A DNA stretch of 51,769 nt. Source: an uncultured Chlorobiaceae bacterium. Lineage in GTDB: Bacteria; Bacteroidota; Chlorobiia; Chlorobiales; Chlorobiaceae. The notes under the pieces are model-generated. The model made no database searches. It was given only the letters and a program-made list of their open reading frames with translations, and was not told the origin of the DNA. The stretch covers positions 1 through 51,769 of the forward strand of contig CAIJPS010000065.1 of the NCBI GenBank assembly GCA_903822595.1. The letters are read 5' to 3'. Position numbers and translations under genes: made by a program. This document shows, in pieces, positions 37,914 to 51,199 of the stretch (the first letter of the stretch is position 1; each line of letters begins with the position of its first letter).

Positions 37914-38066
37914 CGCTCTTTTTCCACTCACTTGCTGGATGGTGGGTATGATATTCGAACCGTTCAGGAAGTAATGGGGCATAATGATGTGCGAACAACC
38001 ATGATTTACACCCATGTTTTAAATCGAGGGCCATCCGGCGTTCGCAGCCCTGTTGACGGCTTGTAA
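37914..38066 (+). pseudogene. intI: Integron integrase 3' remnant (copy A)
   Basis: About 50 codons matching the extreme C-terminus of integron integrases: [15 protein letters not shown], then [18 protein letters not shown] and GVRSPVDGL. It includes the final His and the Tyr nucleophile but nothing upstream, so it is inactive. LL before GH in copy B is VM here. It is a diverged copy of the end of the remnant at 48307-48449. The left limit is approximate, where the match to RHSFATHLL begins. Confidence 0.88.
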
Positions 38067-38239
38067 GGAACGTTGTTATGCCGATCAATATAAGACGTTG
38101 AAATAAAAAGCAACAATGGATTTAAATAGTTTAAAAATAATCGGTTGGCAATATTGTTTGTGGTTTGAAAATAACGTGTTATATGGGTTGTAACTCAAAA
38201 ATTTGCGGTATAGGCGGATCAATCTAATTATTGTTATGC
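37924..38239 (+). repeat. Long direct repeat, copy A (integrase 3' end plus attI region)
   Basis: Matches 48307-48620 over nearly its full length with scattered substitutions and a few small indels. It covers the last 47 codons of the integrase and about 170 bases behind it, ending at the recombination point. Conserved islands include CGGTATAGGCGGAT-like sequence and CTAATTATTGTTA at the very end. It contains an imperfect inverted repeat: ATATAAGACG at 38088-38097 and CGTGTTATAT at 38175-38184. Confidence 0.85.
38233..38239 (+). other. attI-like recombination point A
   Basis: GTTATGC preceded by CTAATTATT, the same context as at 48614. In integrons the crossover is between the G and the first T of GTTRRRY, so cassette 1 would begin at 38234. 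The R'' box of cassette 1's attC (GCCTAAC) differs from the perfect complement (GCATAAC) at one base. Confidence 0.75.
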
Positions 38240-40959: not shown

Positions 40960-41112
40960 ATGTTTGCCAGAACACTAAAATTAAGAGCAGTAACCAGTTA
41001 TAGCCAAAGCGGTGATTATGACATAACCGGTTCCATAGATTCTTCTGGACGGGTTACTTTAAGAGCGGTAACCAGTTATAGCCGAAGCGGAGATTACGAT
41101 ATAACCGGTTAG
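40960..41112 (+). CDS. Cassette 3: 50-aa protein with a duplicated motif
   Basis: ATG at 40960 with AGAAGGTG just upstream. The protein is essentially two copies of LRAVTSYSxSGDYDITG (residues 8-24 and 34-50) joined by SIDSSGRVT. The DNA repeats, each about 51 bases, differ by a handful of mostly silent changes, so selection for the peptide is likely. The last repeat ends exactly at the stop codon. No family is recognised; the pattern suggests two beta-hairpins. It is the only open frame of note in its 441-base cassette. Confidence 0.65.
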   Translation: MFARTLKLRAVTSYSQSGDYDITGSIDSSGRVTLRAVTSYSRSGDYDITG

Positions 41113-42047: not shown

Positions 42048-42105
42048 GCCTAACAATTCGTTCCAGCGGACTGCCTTCGGCAGCCGCTGAACTCAGACGT
42101 TAGGC
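42048..42105 (+). other. attC site 4 (short, 59-base-element size)
   Basis: R'' GCCTAAC is the exact complement of the GTTAGGC at the cassette's own start; R' is also GTTAGGC. Inner arms GTTCCAGCGG and CCGCTGAAC pair with one unpaired C; the centre GCC-TTC-GGC makes a tight hairpin. It is 58 bases long, and its form is typical of many proteobacterial attC sites. Confidence 0.92.
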
Positions 42106-42197
42106 CACAATATTCAATTACCGTTTATCAAACACGACATGCAGGCAAAGAGTGTTGACGCGGCTTACACATTTTTCGAATTTTTTCGGTGTAAAGA

Positions 42198-42650
42198 ATG
42201 GCAATCAAAAAACAGCAAACGAAAAATACATCTCCATCACAATTGCGAAAGTGTCTACTCTTACTCCCTCGCGGGGAGGGCTCATCCGAGATTACCCGGA
42301 TTGTATGCTCTGTACTTCGCGATTGTGGTGTCTATCCAATTTCTTTTGAAGACCGTATGCAAGTTGGTGCGTTGTGGGTAGATGGAGTAATGACTTCGTT
42401 ACGCGAGGCCGATTTCTTGATCGCCGATGTCACAGGTAGAAACGCAAATGTTCTATTTGAACTTGGTATCGCTCATGGTCTTGGCAAGCCATTTGTCCTC
42501 TTAGTTAGCGTGGATGGCAACGGTGATATCCCTTCAGATTTAATGGGTTATCAGTACATTGCCTACGATCCAACAGATATATATATGCTAAGGTCCAAAC
42601 TGGAGCGATTTGTTCAACATGTCGTAGAACGATTGGGGCGTGCATCATGA
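42198..42650 (+). CDS. Cassette 5, gene 1: TIR-like / deoxyribosyltransferase-like protein
   Basis: A 150-aa protein with a flavodoxin-like alpha/beta pattern. The signature is ADFLIADVTGRNANVLFELG (residues 71-90), in which Glu88 aligns with the catalytic Glu of the nucleoside 2-deoxyribosyltransferase/TIR-like superfamily, followed by IAHGLGKPFVLLVS. In related conflict-system proteins such domains bind or cleave nucleotides including NAD+; that activity is inferred only. The stop overlaps the next gene's ATG (ATGA), so the pair is translationally coupled. Confidence 0.72.
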   Translation: MAIKKQQTKNTSPSQLRKCLLLLPRGEGSSEITRIVCSVLRDCGVYPISFEDRMQVGALWVDGVMTSLREADFLIADVTGRNANVLFELGIAHGLGKPFVLLVSVDGNGDIPSDLMGYQYIAYDPTDIYMLRSKLERFVQHVVERLGRAS

Positions 42651-43342
42651 CAGCCTGCCGCACTTGCTTCGTAGTCATGCCGTTTCGTGCGGAATTAAAT
42701 TTCTTTTATCTGTACATTCAAAAGCATTTAGAAGAAAAACATGGCTTGATTGTCCGAAGAGGCGATACTAGCATTCTAACGAAAGTTCTAATGGAGAAAA
42801 TTGAAGCCGAGATTCAAACTGCAGACTTTATCATTGGCGACGTCACGTACTCAAATCCTAATGTGTTTTATGAATTGGGTATTGCTAGAGCCGCAAGAAA
42901 GCCAATAATATTCCTCACTCAAGAGGAGCCAGAAAAGACTCCTGTCGATCTCCGTCAGTTTGAATTCATAAAATATGATCTAGCCAATGATAGAGATCTT
43001 CTTGCAAAGCTAGATAATGCAGTACGGAATCTATTAGGTGAAGATTATCAGACTATATATCAAACTTCGCTTGACCTCCTACGATCATTTAATGCAGAAA
43101 CACAATCTGCCTTCGATTCAGCCCCATTTGAAGAGTTTCAGGCCAGAGTGATGCGGGCCGAGCGATTAGAAGGGATTCCAAAAGGGCCTGCCCTTTTGGA
43201 ATTTCTGTTACCAAAGGTAATATCCGAAGCGACCGATATATCGACCATTCGGAAAATGGAGCAGTGGCTGACATCGGACGCGCGGACGAAACAGCGGAAG
43301 AAGCCTAACAAGCGGGTCAATCTGACCGCCGGGAGCTGCTGA
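42647..43342 (+). CDS. Cassette 5, gene 2: second TIR-like / deoxyribosyltransferase-like protein
   Basis: A 231-aa protein with the same core as its partner: CFVVMPFRAELNFFY near the start, then GDTSILTKVLMEKIEAEI, and ADFIIGDVTYSNPNVFYELG with Glu77. A helical C-terminal region of about 80 residues follows (EEFQARVMRAERLEGIPKGP, ISTIRKMEQWL) and may be an interaction module. The last codons (KPNKRVNLTAGSC) are encoded inside attC 5, as is common for cassette genes. The two proteins may act as a heteromer; this is inference from overlap and shared fold. Confidence 0.72.
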   Translation: MTACRTCFVVMPFRAELNFFYLYIQKHLEEKHGLIVRRGDTSILTKVLMEKIEAEIQTADFIIGDVTYSNPNVFYELGIARAARKPIIFLTQEEPEKTPVDLRQFEFIKYDLANDRDLLAKLDNAVRNLLGEDYQTIYQTSLDLLRSFNAETQSAFDSAPFEEFQARVMRAERLEGIPKGPALLEFLLPKVISEATDISTIRKMEQWLTSDARTKQRKKPNKRVNLTAGSC

Positions 43343-43391
43343 TTTTAAATTCACGTTCATAGGCGGCGGCAGGTTACCCTAGTCGTTCGGT
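43303..43391 (+). other. attC site 5
   Basis: R'' GCCTAAC is the exact complement of its cassette start; R' is the variant GTTCGGT. Inner arms GGGTCAATCTGACCGCCG and CGGCGGCAGGTTACCC pair along most of their length with unpaired bases on the left arm. It overlaps the 3' end of the preceding gene. Confidence 0.88.
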
Positions 43392-43394
43392 GAA

Positions 43395-43490
43395 ATGACA
43401 ACAGACATGGCATACGAACGACAACTGGTTGCAGCAGCTGGTGATGCCCGTGCAATAATGAATCGTATCCCCTGGCGTCGGGAAATATAG
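43395..43490 (+). CDS. Possible 31-aa leader ORF of cassette 6
   Basis: Starts four bases after the R' box and runs MTTDMAYERQLVAAAGDARA to IPWRREI, ending 8 bases before the ATG of the STAND gene; its stop codon overlaps the GGAG that serves that gene. No separate strong ribosome-binding site is visible. It may be a translated leader, or the remnant of an N-terminal gene lost at cassette formation. Low certainty. Confidence 0.3.
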   Translation: MTTDMAYERQLVAAAGDARAIMNRIPWRREI

Positions 43491-43498
43491 GAGTAGCT

Positions 43499-46120
43499 AT
43501 GCCACAAGTTACCATCCAACAATGGAAGTCACGGCCAATCTTTATCAGTTCCACGTTTCGTGATATGCAGGCAGAAAGAGACCATTTACGCAATTTCGTT
43601 TTTCCGCGGCTGGAGGAAGAGTTGCGCAAACGTCGGTGTCATCTGGAATGGATTGATCTCCGGCAAGGCGTGGAATCCGGCGAGGCCAAGACTGAGGAGC
43701 AACGCGAGTTAACTGTCCTAAAAGTTTGCCTTGCTGAAATCAAACGTAGTCGACCATTTCTCATAGTGTTACTCGGGGACCGCTATGGTTGGGTTCCATC
43801 TAGCGACCGTATGCAGATTGCCGCTCAAGAGGCTGGCTTTCCAACTAAAACGGTAGGTAAAAGTGTCACCGCACTAGAAATTGAGTTTGGCATCTTCAAG
43901 GAAAGCTCGGAACAACAACGCCAATGTTTTTTCTACCTTCGCGAACCACTACCGTATGAAAGACTTCCAAAACAGCTTCGTGCCGAATACAGCGAACAGT
44001 TTGCAACAGACGATCATGCTGGTTTACGCCGCAAGGCACTCAACGAACTTAAAGCACGCCTTTTGACTAATCCGGACATCAAATCACGCCTTCGCACTTA
44101 CAAAGCAGATTGGGATGAAAAGAAGAAATCTGTCACAGGTCTTACAACATGGGGCAATCAAGTATTTGAAGATTTGTGGAAGGAATTGAAAACTGAAACC
44201 AGTATCCTCATAGAGCAAGACACACAGGCCTGGGAAGATGTTGAGCGTGCATCGCTTGACCAATTTATCGAGCGATGCAGTCGCGATTTTACCGGACGTG
44301 AGCAAATAATACAGGAGATTTATACACTCGCCTACTCGACGCCAGCGGAAGGCGGTACTTGGGGTGCGTGCGTAACGGGCCTGCCCGGTTCGGGAAAGAG
44401 CTCACTTTTTGCTGAAATGCATCGCAAATTTGAATCTGATTCCAATATTCTTCTACTCAGCGATGCTGCCGGGGCAACGATGCGTGGTTCAAGGGTAGAT
44501 TTCATGTTGCGTCGCTGGATTGCTGAGCTTGCTGGGTCACTTGAGATAAAAAACCCGCTAGCAGAAACAGCCACTGTTGAGAACATAGACTTAGCCTTTT
44601 CTTCATTGTTAGGAAAGGCCTCTTTGAAGAAACGCGTCATTGTGATGCTTGACGCGCTTGATCAATTCGAGCCCACGCCGCGTGCGAAGTATCTCACGTG
44701 GCGCCCCAAGCTTTGGCCAGCTAACGTTAGGCTTGTCGCTACCGCACTGGCGGGCGCAGAGGCGGAGACTCTCACACAACTACCCGGCGTTTGTAAAATA
44801 GAGCTTCCGTCGCTCACGGAAGCAGACTCCTGCAGCATTGCGCAACACGTCTGGAAACGCTGGCATGTACCGTGGAACGACAGAGTATGGCAGGTGCTTG
44901 TTGACAAGAAACTTCCCGCTGGGACTTCAGGGGGAGCGACGAGCAGTCCCCTCTGGACAACGCTTGCTTGTGAACAGCTTGCGCTGCTGGATGCCGACGA
45001 TTTTGCCCGTGCCGAATACCAGTTTGCTGCTGACCGTGACCCTCAGACTCGACTTGAGGGGCTACGTTGTGACCTTGCGGAACGGATGCCACCCGACATG
45101 CCTGGTCTATATGCGTGGTTACTGGCGTATGCTGAAAAAATTCATGGTGAGGCGTCAGTTCGTGCCTTCGTAGGCGCTATTGCCCTAAGCCGCCATGGCT
45201 GGCGTGAGAGTGATCTGCAGGTATTGGTGCCCCGGTTGAGTGAGATTCTTGAGAATGGGGCCAGAGGTCTTCCGCAACATGTGGTTCATGATGCTGTAAT
45301 GGCCCGTGCGCTCGATCGATTTGACCCGAATTACACCCCTTCATACTCATCAAACGTTTTGCCAGTTGCGGAGCTTGCCGCCATCCGACGGACGTTTCGT
45401 TCCAATCTGATACTTCGCAATGAAATGCAATGGGATTTCTTCCACAAAGAAGCCCGCACGTCCATACAACTCCATCTTGGACTGGATCCAGAAATGACGG
45501 TTGCAGTTCACAAAGTGATTGCAGCTTTTCTGATCGAACAACGCACTGATGACCCGGTGCGATGCGACGAAATCACGTTTCACCTTTTGGAAGGGAAAGA
45601 GTATGCCCTCCTTCAAATATTCTACGGATCCAATAACACGACTCATGAACGTGAATTTGCTGCTGCAGTTGCAACCTTTGTAGACGATGTAAATCGCAAC
45701 GGCATGGAACGGCTGATATATATCTCGAATGGTGATGTGAGTCCACGACCGATTGATCCCGATGGACTTTCCGTGAGTGAATTTGATGACATATTCGATG
45801 ACTTAGGAAAGGATACTCGACGGGACGTAGCAAAAGGATGGACTGGCTGGTGCCTTGACAGTCTTCTTCCAGCGATAGCGTCTGCAGCTCCGGTGTCTAC
45901 ACGCCGATCCTTGATTGACTTGATGCTTTCGCGCTTATTGGATTCGCTCAGGGATTTCCCGGAAGATCTTGATCTTCAAAGAGCGGTAGCGAGAGCCCGA
46001 TTCATAGGTGCAGAGCTTGCCATTGCTCAAGGCGACTGGCAGCGAGCACGCCAATTCAACGAAGATGCATTGCGCATCTTTGAAGGTCTAGCGCAAAAGA
46101 ATACTTTAGATTCTGAGTGA
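43499..46120 (+). CDS. Cassette 6: DUF4062-STAND (NACHT-like) NTPase
   Basis: An 873-aa multidomain protein. Residues 12-110 are DUF4062 (RPIFISSTFRDMQAERDHL, LGDRYGWVP), a TIR-like alpha/beta module. A STAND ATPase follows: P-loop GLPGSGKSS (294-302), Walker B VIVMLDALDQF (Asp385), then winged-helix-like sequence (GWRESDLQVLVPRL, FHKEARTSIQLHL). The last 60 residues contain a single TPR-like unit (GAELAIAQGDWQRARQFNED), after which the protein stops at NTLDSE. Related proteins usually carry long TPR sensor arrays in the same chain; here a TPR protein is encoded separately just downstream. A defence role by analogy to Avs-like STAND sensors is plausible. RBS GGAG at 43490-43493. Confidence 0.82.
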   Translation: MPQVTIQQWKSRPIFISSTFRDMQAERDHLRNFVFPRLEEELRKRRCHLEWIDLRQGVESGEAKTEEQRELTVLKVCLAEIKRSRPFLIVLLGDRYGWVPSSDRMQIAAQEAGFPTKTVGKSVTALEIEFGIFKESSEQQRQCFFYLREPLPYERLPKQLRAEYSEQFATDDHAGLRRKALNELKARLLTNPDIKSRLRTYKADWDEKKKSVTGLTTWGNQVFEDLWKELKTETSILIEQDTQAWEDVERASLDQFIERCSRDFTGREQIIQEIYTLAYSTPAEGGTWGACVTGLPGSGKSSLFAEMHRKFESDSNILLLSDAAGATMRGSRVDFMLRRWIAELAGSLEIKNPLAETATVENIDLAFSSLLGKASLKKRVIVMLDALDQFEPTPRAKYLTWRPKLWPANVRLVATALAGAEAETLTQLPGVCKIELPSLTEADSCSIAQHVWKRWHVPWNDRVWQVLVDKKLPAGTSGGATSSPLWTTLACEQLALLDADDFARAEYQFAADRDPQTRLEGLRCDLAERMPPDMPGLYAWLLAYAEKIHGEASVRAFVGAIALSRHGWRESDLQVLVPRLSEILENGARGLPQHVVHDAVMARALDRFDPNYTPSYSSNVLPVAELAAIRRTFRSNLILRNEMQWDFFHKEARTSIQLHLGLDPEMTVAVHKVIAAFLIEQRTDDPVRCDEITFHLLEGKEYALLQIFYGSNNTTHEREFAAAVATFVDDVNRNGMERLIYISNGDVSPRPIDPDGLSVSEFDDIFDDLGKDTRRDVAKGWTGWCLDSLLPAIASAAPVSTRRSLIDLMLSRLLDSLRDFPEDLDLQRAVARARFIGAELAIAQGDWQRARQFNEDALRIFEGLAQKNTLDSE

Positions 46121-46126
46121 ACGGCC

Positions 46127-46303
46127 ATGCAGCTTCATAAACTAACAATAATGCCACGAGGATGGAAAGCCTTGGTGAACCCTAAAGAACGTACTGATTC
46201 TTCACACGCTGTAGGTCACCATCTGTCCTTGAGTCTCAGTTTCATAACGACGGAGCAAATTAGTGATAACTTTGGAGTCTACTTTTTTGAAATGGAGGTT
46301 TAG
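46127..46303 (+). CDS. Cassette 6: 58-aa small ORF between the STAND and TPR genes
   Basis: Starts six bases after the STAND stop, in the same frame, and ends four bases before the next ATG. It begins MQLHKLTIMPRGWKALVNPK and ends FGVYFFEMEV. No family is recognised. The end overlaps the GGAGG of the TPR gene. Because it is in frame with the STAND gene, only one TGA separates them, so it could be a coupled small protein or a readthrough extension. No repeat similarity to TPR units is seen. Confidence 0.45.
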   Translation: MQLHKLTIMPRGWKALVNPKERTDSSHAVGHHLSLSLSFITTEQISDNFGVYFFEMEV

Positions 46304-46307
46304 TGAT

Positions 46308-47051
46308 ATGAATGAACAACAGATTGTCGATCTAATCAACGGTCATCTCATGCAAGGTGATCTCTCTATGCAAGCAGGTGATATAGGTGCAGCAAAGAAT
46401 GCTTACCAACGAGCCAAGGATGTTTCCCCCAGTTTGTCATTTTGGTTTGCAGTGGCATGTGATAAGCTGGGTGATGTGGCGCGGTTCAGTGAACAGTTCT
46501 CCACCGCACACAAAGAATATGATCAGGCGCTTCCTGTCTTCCGCGCGCTGGCTGTGACGCAATACGAACATCGTCGCGATGTTTCATTGTGTTTATCAAA
46601 AATAGGCGAACTTGCCCTGGCTGAAGGTAACATTGCTTCAGCAAGACTTGCATTAGGGGAACACTACTCAATCGCTGAAGAAATTGCCGCTTCGGACCCA
46701 AGCCACTATGAATATCAACGTGATTTAGCAGGGGCTCACAACCGCTTGCAGCAAATGGAAACAATGGGTGGCAATCTCTCGCAAGCGCTTATACATGCGC
46801 AGGCTGCACATGCAATCATACAAAAGTTGGTTGACATTGACTCTACAAATACCAGTTGCGTTCAAGACCTTGCAGGATCCGATTTTGTCTTCGCTATGCT
46901 GTTGCTCAAGTCTGGCGATAAGGAGCGGGCTGTTAATATGCTGAAGAACAGTCTTAGAACGCTTAAGGAGTTGGCTCAACAAAACAAACTTGATGTAAAA
47001 GGCAAGCAGTTGTTGGCGCAGTTGAGCAAGCAGTTCGGTTTCAAGTTGTGA
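46308..47051 (+). CDS. Cassette 6: TPR-repeat protein
   Basis: The ATG at 46308 (MNEQQIVDLINGHLMQGDLS) is chosen because GGAGG lies 8 bases upstream; the frame is open from 46263. The 247-aa protein is all helical with TPR-like units of about 50 residues: MQAGDIGAAKNAYQRAKDV, KLGDVARFSEQFSTAHKEYD, KIGELALAEGNIASARLALG and RLQQMETMGGNLSQALIHAQ. The spacer sequence ASDPSHYEYQRDLAGAHN is of the type found in TPR tails of STAND-ATPase proteins. It probably supplies the sensor part that the upstream STAND gene lacks. Confidence 0.78.
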   Translation: MNEQQIVDLINGHLMQGDLSMQAGDIGAAKNAYQRAKDVSPSLSFWFAVACDKLGDVARFSEQFSTAHKEYDQALPVFRALAVTQYEHRRDVSLCLSKIGELALAEGNIASARLALGEHYSIAEEIAASDPSHYEYQRDLAGAHNRLQQMETMGGNLSQALIHAQAAHAIIQKLVDIDSTNTSCVQDLAGSDFVFAMLLLKSGDKERAVNMLKNSLRTLKELAQQNKLDVKGKQLLAQLSKQFGFKL

Positions 47052-47113
47052 GCTAACTTAAATGAGGAAGATGAGGGAGTTAGCAATTGACACCGGACAA
47101 ACTGAAAAGACTG

Positions 47114-47186
47114 ACCGAACGAGGCGTTGCAGCCAATCGGCGAAAGCGCAGGCTACTTTCGCCTCTGGCTGAACTCTGTGTTAGTC
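47114..47186 (+). other. attC site 6
   Basis: R'' ACCGAAC is the exact complement of the variant GTTCGGT that opens this 3.8-kb cassette, which ties the distant ends together. R' is GTTAGTC. Inner arms GTTGCAGCC and GGCTGAAC pair with one unpaired G, and GGCGAAAG/CTTTCGCC makes a perfect inner stem. It begins 63 bases after the TPR stop. Confidence 0.92.
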
Positions 47187-47668: not shown

Positions 47669-47745
47669 GACTAACAATCACATTAAGTCCGTTCACTTCG
47701 TTCGCCCGACGCTCGTACCTCGGCGACTTATGTGAGGCGTTATGC
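47669..47745 (+). other. attC site 7
   Basis: R'' GACTAAC is the exact complement of the GTTAGTC that opens cassette 7. R' is GTTATGC. Inner arms TCACATTAAGTC and GACTTATGTGA pair with one unpaired T. The ATG within the R' box is also the start of the following chimeric frame. Confidence 0.92.
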
Positions 47746-48449
47746 ATGCAAAAGCACATCGCGATACATACAGAGAATTGACCGATAAACATAGGGAATC
47801 AAGGGGGAAAGAACTGTTTAGTCGTGCTTTACACGACATCCAGCATACTCTTGGGATGTATGTGCTGAGTTTTAGCATTATTCCTGCTGAATGTGGGGGA
47901 TATGGATACGGTCATGACTGCCCACACTTATTCCAACGATTTAGTGTAATAATTATGGTTCGTGATAGGACGGGAGCGAAGGACAGGATAACGTTACCGG
48001 AGTCGCTGAAAAAGCCACTTGGCGACCATCTGAAAAAAGTCAGGAGCATTCACGATAACGATCTTGCCGATGGTTGGGGCCCTGTACTCTTACCTGGAGC
48101 TTTAGACCGTAAATATCCCAATGCGCCTGCCGAATGGCGATGGCAGAGGGTATTTCCTCAGGAAAGCCGGTGGGTGAACGCAAAAACCAGCGAACAGGGA
48201 CGGCATTACATAGATGAATCGCTGATTCAAAAAGCGGTTAAAAGGGCTGCTTTTGATGCACAATTGACAAAACGTGCCACTTGCCATACATTTCGGCACT
48301 CTTTTGCCACTCACTTGCTGGAAGGTGGATATGATATTCGAACCGTTCAGGAACTTCTTGGGCATAATGATGTACGAACTACCATGATTTACACCCATGT
48401 GTTAAATCGTGGGCCATCCGGAGTTCGCAGCCCTGTTGACGGCTTGTAA
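47742..48449 (+). pseudogene. intI: Chimera: cassette 8 gene start fused to integron integrase (copy B)
   Basis: The 235-codon frame starts inside the attC 7 R' box. Residues 1 to about 68 are an unrecognised cassette protein ([20 protein letters not shown]). From about residue 70 it is the C-terminal half of an integron integrase: Lys80 in DRTGAKDR, the IntI-specific extra segment [18 protein letters not shown] (117-134), His182-x-x-Arg185 in CHTFRHSF, His208 in LLGHND, and the Tyr217 nucleophile in MIYTHV. The N-terminal DNA-binding domain and the first catalytic Arg are lost, so recombination activity is not expected. No cassette 8 attC was found before the join. Confidence 0.88.
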
Positions 48450-48620
48450 AAAAACGTTTTTATGCGGAATATAAGACGCTGAAATAAAAAGCATAATCAG
48501 ATTTAACTGAATTATATAAAATCGGTTAGTGGTATTTTTCTCGGTTTGAAAATGTCGTCTTATATGGATTGGAATTCAAAAATCCATAGTATAGGCGGAT
48601 CCATCTAATTATTGTTAGGG
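48307..48620 (+). repeat. Long direct repeat, copy B (integrase 3' end plus attI region)
   Basis: Second copy of the segment at 37924-38239. Here the inverted repeat is perfect over ten bases: ATATAAGACG at 48469-48478 and CGTCTTATAT at 48556-48565. A smaller hairpin, ATGGATT/AATCCAT, follows near 48563-48590. Divergence between the copies shows that the duplication is not recent. Confidence 0.85.
48614..48620 (+). other. attI-like recombination point B
   Basis: GTTAGGG in the context CTAATTATT-GTTA, the same as point A. The R'' box of the next attC is CCCTAAC, its exact complement, which marks 48615 as the first base of cassette 9. This links attI B to a downstream array. Confidence 0.85.
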
Positions 48621-49885: not shown

Positions 49886-51199
49886 TTGAACGAGAATCTT
49901 TTTGATATTGAAGCCTTGTCGCTGCGCTGCAGATCTGAACAGTCAAAGAGCTACATTGCCGAAGCGACGCTCTGCTATAGAGCCGGGGCGTATAGAGCTG
50001 CTATCGTTAGTACTTGGATCTCGGTTGTGTTTGATCTGATTGACAAAATCAGAGAGCTTGCAGTGAGTGGGGATGCCGCTGCTCGGGATCTTGAAAGTCA
50101 ATTTCAAACGTACGTTGACCAAATAAATGATGGGAACCAGCAGGGAGTTGCAAAGGCTCTAGAATTTGAGCGTGAGATCCTTGATGTATGCCGTGACAAG
50201 TTGCGGTTCTTTGACCAACAACAGCTTGTTGACATATATCGATTAAGAGAAGACCGGCATCGTTGTGCGCACCCTTCATTTCAGCAGGTAGGTTTGCCCT
50301 ACAAGCCGTCTGCAGAGCAGGCGAGACTACATATAAGGAATGCGGTTGTACATGTACTTGCCCAGCCTCCGGTTCAAGGGAAGGCGGCACTTGCTGGAAT
50401 TAAAAATCTCGTTGCATCAGAGTACTTCCCTAAGGATGTTGAGAAAGCAATCTTGCAGCTCAAGAAATCCGGATTGGAGAACCCAACTGACTCACTTATT
50501 AATTCAACTATTGACGCCCTTGTTTTCGGATATCTTACACCCGAAGACGATCTGTACGAGAAACTTCAAGTAGTGCCTGCCCTAAATGCGCTGTACGAAC
50601 TATACCCTGGTCACTTTGAGGCAAGGATTGGTGTTCAGCTCAGCAAAGCAGTTAGGGATGTCGAAGATGATAGAGTTTTTTTTGCACTCTACTTAGTGGT
50701 GTGCGTCAATCGCGCATGGAATCTAATTGACCAGCCTTCAAAAAACAAGATTGAACTCGTTGTTAAAGAGATGTCCTATGAAGAATTTGCCTTGGCAGCC
50801 GAAGCTTTAAGGGGTGTCACGCAGTTGCGACCAGTTGTCGAAGCGCATGTACAAAACTTTAATCTTGATCAGTTGGCAGGTATTATCGGGACAAAGGGCT
50901 TTGAGATCGTCTTCAAAGAAAGGGCAATTGAGCTTCTTGCAGCGTCAAGGTCTTGGGATAGAACTAATGCCATATTTAATAAAGTCGTTTTTCCAATATT
51001 CGCGAATCTTCAGGTGGAAGATGTCACAAAAATAATTAAACTTTGTTCTGAGCATGGAGCGGACCTGCCAGGGGCACATGGATTTGGACTGTTTGTGCAA
51101 AAGGTTCGTGATACGGGTCTTGTTCCGAATGACGTACTCAATCCGCTCCTTGTCGAGAATCGCGGAGAGTATTTAGTTCTTCAACAAGAGCGAACATGA
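49886..51199 (+). CDS. Cassette 11: HEPN-like domain protein
   Basis: A 437-aa protein beginning MNENLFDIEALSLRCRSEQS from a TTG codon with AAGGACGG about 8 bases upstream; no ATG is available nearby. Residues 20-165 look like a HEPN domain: the helix AEATLCYRAGAYRAAIVSTW, and the RxxxxH motif at Arg124-His129 in REDRHRCAHPSF, the ribonuclease signature of this superfamily. The remaining 270 residues are helical, possibly a HEAT-like or recognition domain (SLINSTIDALVFGYL, FEIVFKERAIELLAASRSW). RNase activity and a defence role are inferences from the motif. Confidence 0.7.
   Translation: MNENLFDIEALSLRCRSEQSKSYIAEATLCYRAGAYRAAIVSTWISVVFDLIDKIRELAVSGDAAARDLESQFQTYVDQINDGNQQGVAKALEFEREILDVCRDKLRFFDQQQLVDIYRLREDRHRCAHPSFQQVGLPYKPSAEQARLHIRNAVVHVLAQPPVQGKAALAGIKNLVASEYFPKDVEKAILQLKKSGLENPTDSLINSTIDALVFGYLTPEDDLYEKLQVVPALNALYELYPGHFEARIGVQLSKAVRDVEDDRVFFALYLVVCVNRAWNLIDQPSKNKIELVVKEMSYEEFALAAEALRGVTQLRPVVEAHVQNFNLDQLAGIIGTKGFEIVFKERAIELLAASRSWDRTNAIFNKVVFPIFANLQVEDVTKIIKLCSEHGADLPGAHGFGLFVQKVRDTGLVPNDVLNPLLVENRGEYLVLQQERT

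What the first reader, a model, noticed from the sequence alone, without database searches (positions are those of the whole stretch)
43386..47180. A 3.8-kb multi-gene cassette carrying a STAND NTPase, a small ORF and a TPR protein
The cassette's ends match exactly: GTTCGGT at the left and ACCGAAC in the right-hand attC, both rare variants of the core box. This ties three or four genes into one mobile unit far larger than the usual single-gene cassette. The DUF4062-STAND protein keeps its ATPase motifs but lacks a long repeat sensor, which appears to be supplied by a separate TPR protein. A split sensor/NTPase system moved as one cassette would be new to me.
Basis: partly seen in the sequence, partly recalled or inferred. 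Interest (0 to 1): 0.78.

Follow-up and report, generated by a model that had tools for sequence, protein, structure and literature searches.

The report
Split NLR-like immune gene on integron cassette
A green-sulfur-bacterial integron carries, as one unusually large movable cassette, what looks like a phage-triggered NAD-destroying immune protein whose sensor repeats, normally part of the same chain, have become a separate gene.

Summary
The cassette is real. It runs from core GTTCGGT (43385) to its own attC (47114-47186), 3,795 bp, and its two ends match 7/7. The window's ten cassettes match their own ends far better than each other's (1 of 200,000 permutations as good). No credible attC lies inside. 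The host is Chlorobiaceae; an intact integron integrase lies on another contig.

The 873-aa protein is a DUF4062-STAND protein. DUF4062 was recently shown to be a TIR-like NADase (Swarozyc, human TEP1). Its domain aligns with the human TEP1 crystal sequence (E=2.9e-21), keeping TEP1 catalytic E1008 (E127) and pocket arginines R908 and R976. The NTPase motifs are intact.

In the nearest relatives (sister at 45% identity, support 100/99) the TPR array is the C-terminal part of the same chain, so the split is a derived gene fission. One relative has lost the array. No other split case was seen among the 80 nearest loci. The TPR gene is open, has a strong Shine-Dalgarno and folds confidently (pLDDT 95), so a working two-chain system is likely but unproven. 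The 58-aa ORF has no detectable relative and may be non-coding.

New variant of a known kind.

The parts
43386..47180 (+). integron gene cassette (recombination unit, G^TT to G^TT), 3,795 bp
   Evidence: start core GTTCGGT and own attC left box ACCGAAC are exact reverse complements; no credible attC inside
43303..43391 (+). attC of the preceding cassette, whose right core GTTCGGT is the left end of this cassette
   Evidence: GCCTAAC...GTTCGGT; GCCTAAC matches that cassette's own start core 7/7
43499..46120 (+). 873-aa DUF4062 (TIR-like NADase) - STAND NTPase - winged-helix/helical region ending in one TPR-like unit
   Evidence: Pfam DUF4062 2.4e-12, AAA_16 4.3e-9; TEP1 TIR domain 11gz E=2.9e-21; E127/R21/R95 = TEP1 E1008/R908/R976; AlphaFold2 mean pLDDT 86, fold matches Avs3, SAMD9, Apaf-1
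46121..46307 (+). intervening stretch with 58-aa ORF 46127-46303 in the STAND frame after its stop; no known relatives; role unknown
   Evidence: no Pfam, NCBIfam, PADLOC or plasmid tblastn match, no convincing match in fetched loci; codon signal not distinguishable from another frame
46294..46298 (+). GGAGG Shine-Dalgarno, 9 nt before the TPR start codon
   Evidence: read directly from the sequence, positions
46308..47051 (+). 247-aa TPR protein (11 helices), homologous to the C-terminal TPR array fused to DUF4062-STAND in relatives
   Evidence: L024 E=8e-21 up to its C-terminal end, L043 3e-16, L099 1e-13; AlphaFold2 pLDDT 95; Foldseek kinesin-light-chain TPR
47114..47186 (+). attC of this cassette (ACCGAAC...GTTAGTC); bottom-strand hairpin
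   Evidence: single-strand DNA fold z=-2.1, 6 of 200 shuffles as stable; the right core GTTAGTC belongs to the next cassette, whose own box GACTAAC matches it 7/7

Best explanation
The 3.8-kb unit is one integron gene cassette carrying an NLR-like abortive-infection system of the DUF4062-STAND-TPR type. The inferred working is as follows. The DUF4062 domain is a TIR-like NADase effector. The STAND NTPase holds it inactive and oligomerises on triggering. The TPR solenoid senses a phage or stress ligand. Activation then depletes NAD+ and stops the infected cell. In relatives all three parts are one chain; here the chain was cut after the first TPR unit, so the sensor is a separate protein that must dock on the C-terminal TPR/helical part of the STAND protein. 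Shown by sequence: the cassette boundaries, the homologies, the conserved catalytic residues, the fusion in relatives and the intact reading frames. Inferred: NADase activity, phage triggering, docking of the two proteins, and that the split system works.
For: Matched cassette ends 7/7, own-end matching across ten cassettes. TEP1 TIR alignment E=2.9e-21; numbering checked because R908, R954, R976 and E1008 all fall on the right letters with one offset, and R21, R95 and E127 are kept; E127 is the only Glu among nearly invariant columns of 30 homologues. DUF4062 proteins are NADases and give phage defence (PMC13174449). The STAND model resembles Avs3, SAMD9 and Apaf-1. TPR array fused to the same core in the nearest relatives; window sister to fused L024 with 100/99 support. 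TPR gene: open frame, GGAGG 9 nt before ATG, coding-like codon use in its own frame only (0.21 against -0.09 and -0.06 bits per codon), pLDDT 95. Other defence-like cassettes in the same arrays: Cap12/PycTIR-like pair and a PD-T7-3-like gene, E=6.7e-27.
Against: No close homologue has the split form, so there is no comparative evidence that the two-chain form is maintained. The bacterial NADase shown by experiment (KpSwz) has a different C-terminal domain and no STAND; NPHP3, NWD1 and NWD2, which do have DUF4062-NACHT, showed no NADase activity (PMC13174449). The array sits behind truncated integrase copies and no promoter-like site was found upstream of the STAND gene, so expression is unknown. 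The two-chain complex could not be modelled here.
Confidence: 0.58

Rival explanations
1. The STAND gene is a degenerating or shortened one-chain receptor. The stop at 46118 cut off its TPR array, the downstream TPR frame is a leftover, and the STAND protein works alone or not at all.
For: Fusion is the ancestral state. L029, sister to fused L028, is a natural relative lacking the array, so the array can be dispensable. The 187-nt gap shows no TPR homology in any frame. Other parts of this array are broken: two truncated integrases.
Against: The TPR frame is fully open over 247 codons, keeps homology to the C-terminal end of the relatives, and has a strong Shine-Dalgarno and coding-like codon use. 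The change is not a simple frameshift.
Confidence: 0.27
2. A real cassette with a working DUF4062-STAND-TPR protein pair, but not an antiphage system: for example a regulator or stress sensor whose DUF4062 domain is not an NADase.
For: Human NPHP3, NWD1 and NWD2 have DUF4062-NACHT and showed no NADase activity (PMC13174449). No phage trigger is known for this architecture.
Against: The catalytic Glu and both active-site arginines needed in TEP1 are kept; defence-like neighbours in the array; about 20% of bacterial DUF4062 homologues lie in predicted defence islands (PMC13174449).
Confidence: 0.12
3. Not one cassette: two or more cassettes whose inner attC was missed, or a chance match of the ends.
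For: The cassette is 2-9 times longer than the others; weak attC-like patterns exist inside the genes; a degenerate AACTAAC...GTTTAGT pair lies in the gap.
Against: The gap does not fold like an attC (z=+0.72) and its ends match neither neighbour as well as the outer pair (7/7). STAND and TPR are halves of one ancestral gene. Permutation 1 in 200,000.
Confidence: 0.03

Closest known systems
L024 protein, Phycisphaerae MAG (JAGOQT010000120.1), and relatives in Gimesia, Eremiobacterota, Zipacnadia and Pelotomaculum MAGs
   Same: same DUF4062-STAND-helical-TPR order; 42-45% identity over most of the STAND protein in the closest
   Different: TPR array in the same chain; no integron context recognised
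Swarozyc (KpSwz, DUF4062 antiphage system; PMC13174449)
   Same: DUF4062 TIR-like effector
   Different: KpSwz has a C-terminal portal-binding winged domain, no STAND NTPase and no TPR; one gene
Human TEP1 (DUF4062-NACHT-WD40) and NPHP3 (DUF4062-NACHT-TPR)
   Same: DUF4062 next to a STAND/NACHT NTPase and repeats; TEP1 active-site residues kept
   Different: eukaryotic, single chains, other repeats or roles
Avs (AVAST) STAND antiphage receptors
   Same: effector-STAND-repeat-sensor logic; best structural match is Avs3
   Different: single chain, other effectors, very low sequence identity (12%)
Antiphage cassettes of chromosomal and mobile integrons (Darracq 2025 and Getz 2025, as described in PMC12409362)
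   Same: defence genes carried as cassettes
   Different: those are small and streamlined; systems of more than two genes were reported absent; this cassette is 3.8 kb with an 873-aa receptor

Membership tests
Integron gene cassette | start core and own attC left box complementary | tested here: met
   GTTCGGT/ACCGAAC 7/7
Integron gene cassette | attC that folds as a bottom-strand hairpin | tested here: met
   z=-2.1, modest
Integron gene cassette | integron integrase in the genome | tested here: met
   C73:1919-2860, 466 bits, above cut-off
Integron gene cassette | excision and insertion by IntI | not testable with these tools
   needs experiment
DUF4062 TIR-like NADases | DUF4062 domain with catalytic Glu | tested here: met
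   Pfam 2.4e-12; E127 aligns with TEP1 E1008
DUF4062 TIR-like NADases | NADase activity | not testable with these tools
   needs a biochemical assay
Swarozyc (KpSwz type) | DUF4062 plus portal-binding auxiliary domain, without NTPase | tested here: not met
   STAND NTPase and TPR are present instead; not filed as Swarozyc
STAND / NLR-like receptors | Walker A and B in a STAND/NACHT-type NTPase with N-terminal effector | tested here: met
STAND / NLR-like receptors | C-terminal repeat sensor in the same chain | tested here: not met
   only one TPR-like unit in cis; the array is a separate ORF
STAND / NLR-like receptors | phage trigger | not testable with these tools
   needs phage challenge
Avs (AVAST) | sequence membership in known Avs or PADLOC models | tested here: not met
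   only mad8, E=0.046

The most novel reading that the evidence does not exclude
A bacterial NLR whose ligand-sensing TPR solenoid is a separate, exchangeable protein docking on an effector-NTPase chain, with an intervening 58-aa third component, moved as one integron cassette: a modular two- or three-part immune receptor on an unusually large defence cassette.
Probability: 0.3. Interest if true: 0.65.

Novelty: new variant of a known kind. Interest (0 to 1): 0.45.

Why it matters
It would show that integron cassettes can carry a full NLR-type receptor, against the published impression that large or multi-gene defence systems are absent from integrons. It also gives a natural two-chain version of a DUF4062-STAND-TPR receptor, close in domain order to human NPHP3 and TEP1, in which sensing and execution can be tested separately.

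Tried and rejected
Single-protein scans of viral contigs with the STAND or TPR protein found nothing, and neither did an alignment-based viral scan. Phage records: none. Plasmids: only distant DUF4062 proteins. The small ORF gave no match; a 32-aa ORF before the STAND gene (43395-43493) gave no convincing match either and is ignored. Idea that relatives also sit in integrons: my attC heuristic gives many false hits in GC-rich contigs and also missed this cassette's own attC; L029 and L030 flanks read as non-integron. Three of the eleven nearest relatives' genomes do have an integron integrase, but no link to the STAND gene was seen. Idea of a hidden attC between STAND and TPR: rejected. Idea of a simple frameshift between STAND and TPR: rejected, since 187 nt without TPR homology separate them.

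Full report
1. Setting. The window is contig C65 of a 3.04-Mb genome. Its same-genus neighbour G073 carries the same DUF4062 protein as public contig CAIWUU010000007.1, titled 'uncultured Chlorobiaceae bacterium' (L091 = L009), so the host is Chlorobiaceae. An intact integron integrase lies on contig C73 (466 bits) and is read toward attI, in the cassette direction. That arrangement is known from Treponema, whose intI is related to that of Chlorobium phaeobacteroides (PMC3607928). The window holds two truncated intI 3' ends with attI-like tails (37917-38063 and 47949-48446), about 78% identical to the C73 copy and 84% to each other. Each is followed by cassettes.

2. The cassette. Ten cassettes could be delimited. 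Each start core matches the left box of its own attC in 6-7 of 7 positions (total 67/70), against 5.27 on average for wrong pairs; 1 of 200,000 permutations does as well. For this cassette the pair is GTTCGGT/ACCGAAC, 7/7, and no other box or start among the ten cassettes reaches 7/7 with either. The boxes were first found by eye, so the permutation figure is somewhat flattering. The unit is 3,795 bp. The attC (47114-47186) forms the usual bottom-strand hairpin (z=-2.1). The stretch between STAND and TPR does not fold as an attC.

3. The STAND protein. Pfam finds DUF4062 and an AAA_16/STAND NTPase. DUF4062 was unexplained until a 2026 preprint showed it to be a TIR-like NADase acting in antiphage defence (Swarozyc) and in human TEP1 (PMC13174449). 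The window's domain matches the crystal sequence of the TEP1 domain (11gz) at E=2.9e-21. Numbering that chain from residue 894 puts R908, R954, R976 and E1008 on the right letters; E1008, R908 and R976 correspond to E127, R21 and R95 here. E127 is the only Glu among the nearly invariant columns of 30 homologues. The AlphaFold2 model (pLDDT 86) resembles Avs3, SAMD9 and Apaf-1.

4. The TPR protein and the split. Among about 85,000 species genomes, the closest relatives of the STAND protein are in Phycisphaerae, Verrucomicrobia, Gimesia, Eremiobacterota, Eisenbacteria and others. In L024, L026, L027, L028, L031, L043 and L099 the TPR array is in the same ORF. In L032 it is in the second of two ORFs separated by an apparent frameshift inside the STAND part. 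L029 ends without an array. L025 and L030 are cut or broken before the end. The window's TPR protein aligns to the C-terminal end of L024 (E=8e-21). On the tree the window is sister to L024 with 100/99 support, so the one-chain form is most simply ancestral. The break lies after the first TPR-like unit; the two frames differ by one and are 187 nt apart. The TPR gene has GGAGG 9 nt before its ATG, coding-like codon use in its own frame and a pLDDT-95 solenoid.

5. The small ORF. The 58 codons after the STAND stop lie in the STAND frame, have no relatives in what was searched, and score no better than another frame. They may be a small coupled gene or plain spacer.

6. Neighbours. Array 1 also has a two-ORF cassette (42099-43385) with TIR/NDT-like proteins matching Cap12 and PycTIR models. 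Array 2 has a PD-T7-3-like protein (49886-51199, E=6.7e-27). This fits reports that integrons store antiphage genes (PMC12409362). The same review says integron defence genes are small and that larger systems of more than two genes were absent, so this cassette is unusual in size.

7. Mechanism. By homology: TPR senses, STAND oligomerises, DUF4062 hydrolyses NAD+. Every biochemical step is inferred. The two-chain form requires docking; the TPR-like unit at STAND residues about 799-867 is the natural place. A precedent for TPRs and a TIR-STAND protein on separate genes exists in another conflict system (PMC7159879).

8. Verdict. Observation confirmed. Interpretation partly supported: one cassette yes; a new split class no; a derived, probably working, two-gene form of a known one-chain receptor likely. 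Interest 0.45.

Noticed in passing
window 49886-51199: Cassette gene of array 2 matches PADLOC PD-T7-3 (E=6.7e-27 over residues 6-168): another defence-like cassette.
   Followed up: partly
window 42198-43342: Two overlapping ORFs in one cassette, both weakly TIR/NDT-like (Cap12 / PycTIR models, 1e-5 to 1e-6): a second multi-gene, defence-like cassette.
   Followed up: partly
window 37917-38235 and 47742-48617: Two truncated integron integrase 3' ends each with an attI-like tail and a following array; the second ORF (47742-48449) has a foreign 69-aa N terminus joined to IntI model position 149. An intact copy is on contig C73.
   Followed up: partly
window 40960-41112: Short cassette ORF with a 52-nt direct repeat (peptide RAVTSYSxSGDYDITG twice), copies 90% identical.
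   Followed up: no
L008:2708-6184 (G000:C34): Same genome has an independent one-chain DUF4062-STAND-TPR protein (1158 aa) with about ten kinesin-light-chain-type TPRs, matching the NPHP3 TPR model (3.7e-65).
   Followed up: partly
L009:1598-8463: Tandem pair of DUF4062-STAND-TPR genes in another Chlorobiaceae genome with similar cores and differing TPR arrays: suggests sensor diversification.
   Followed up: no
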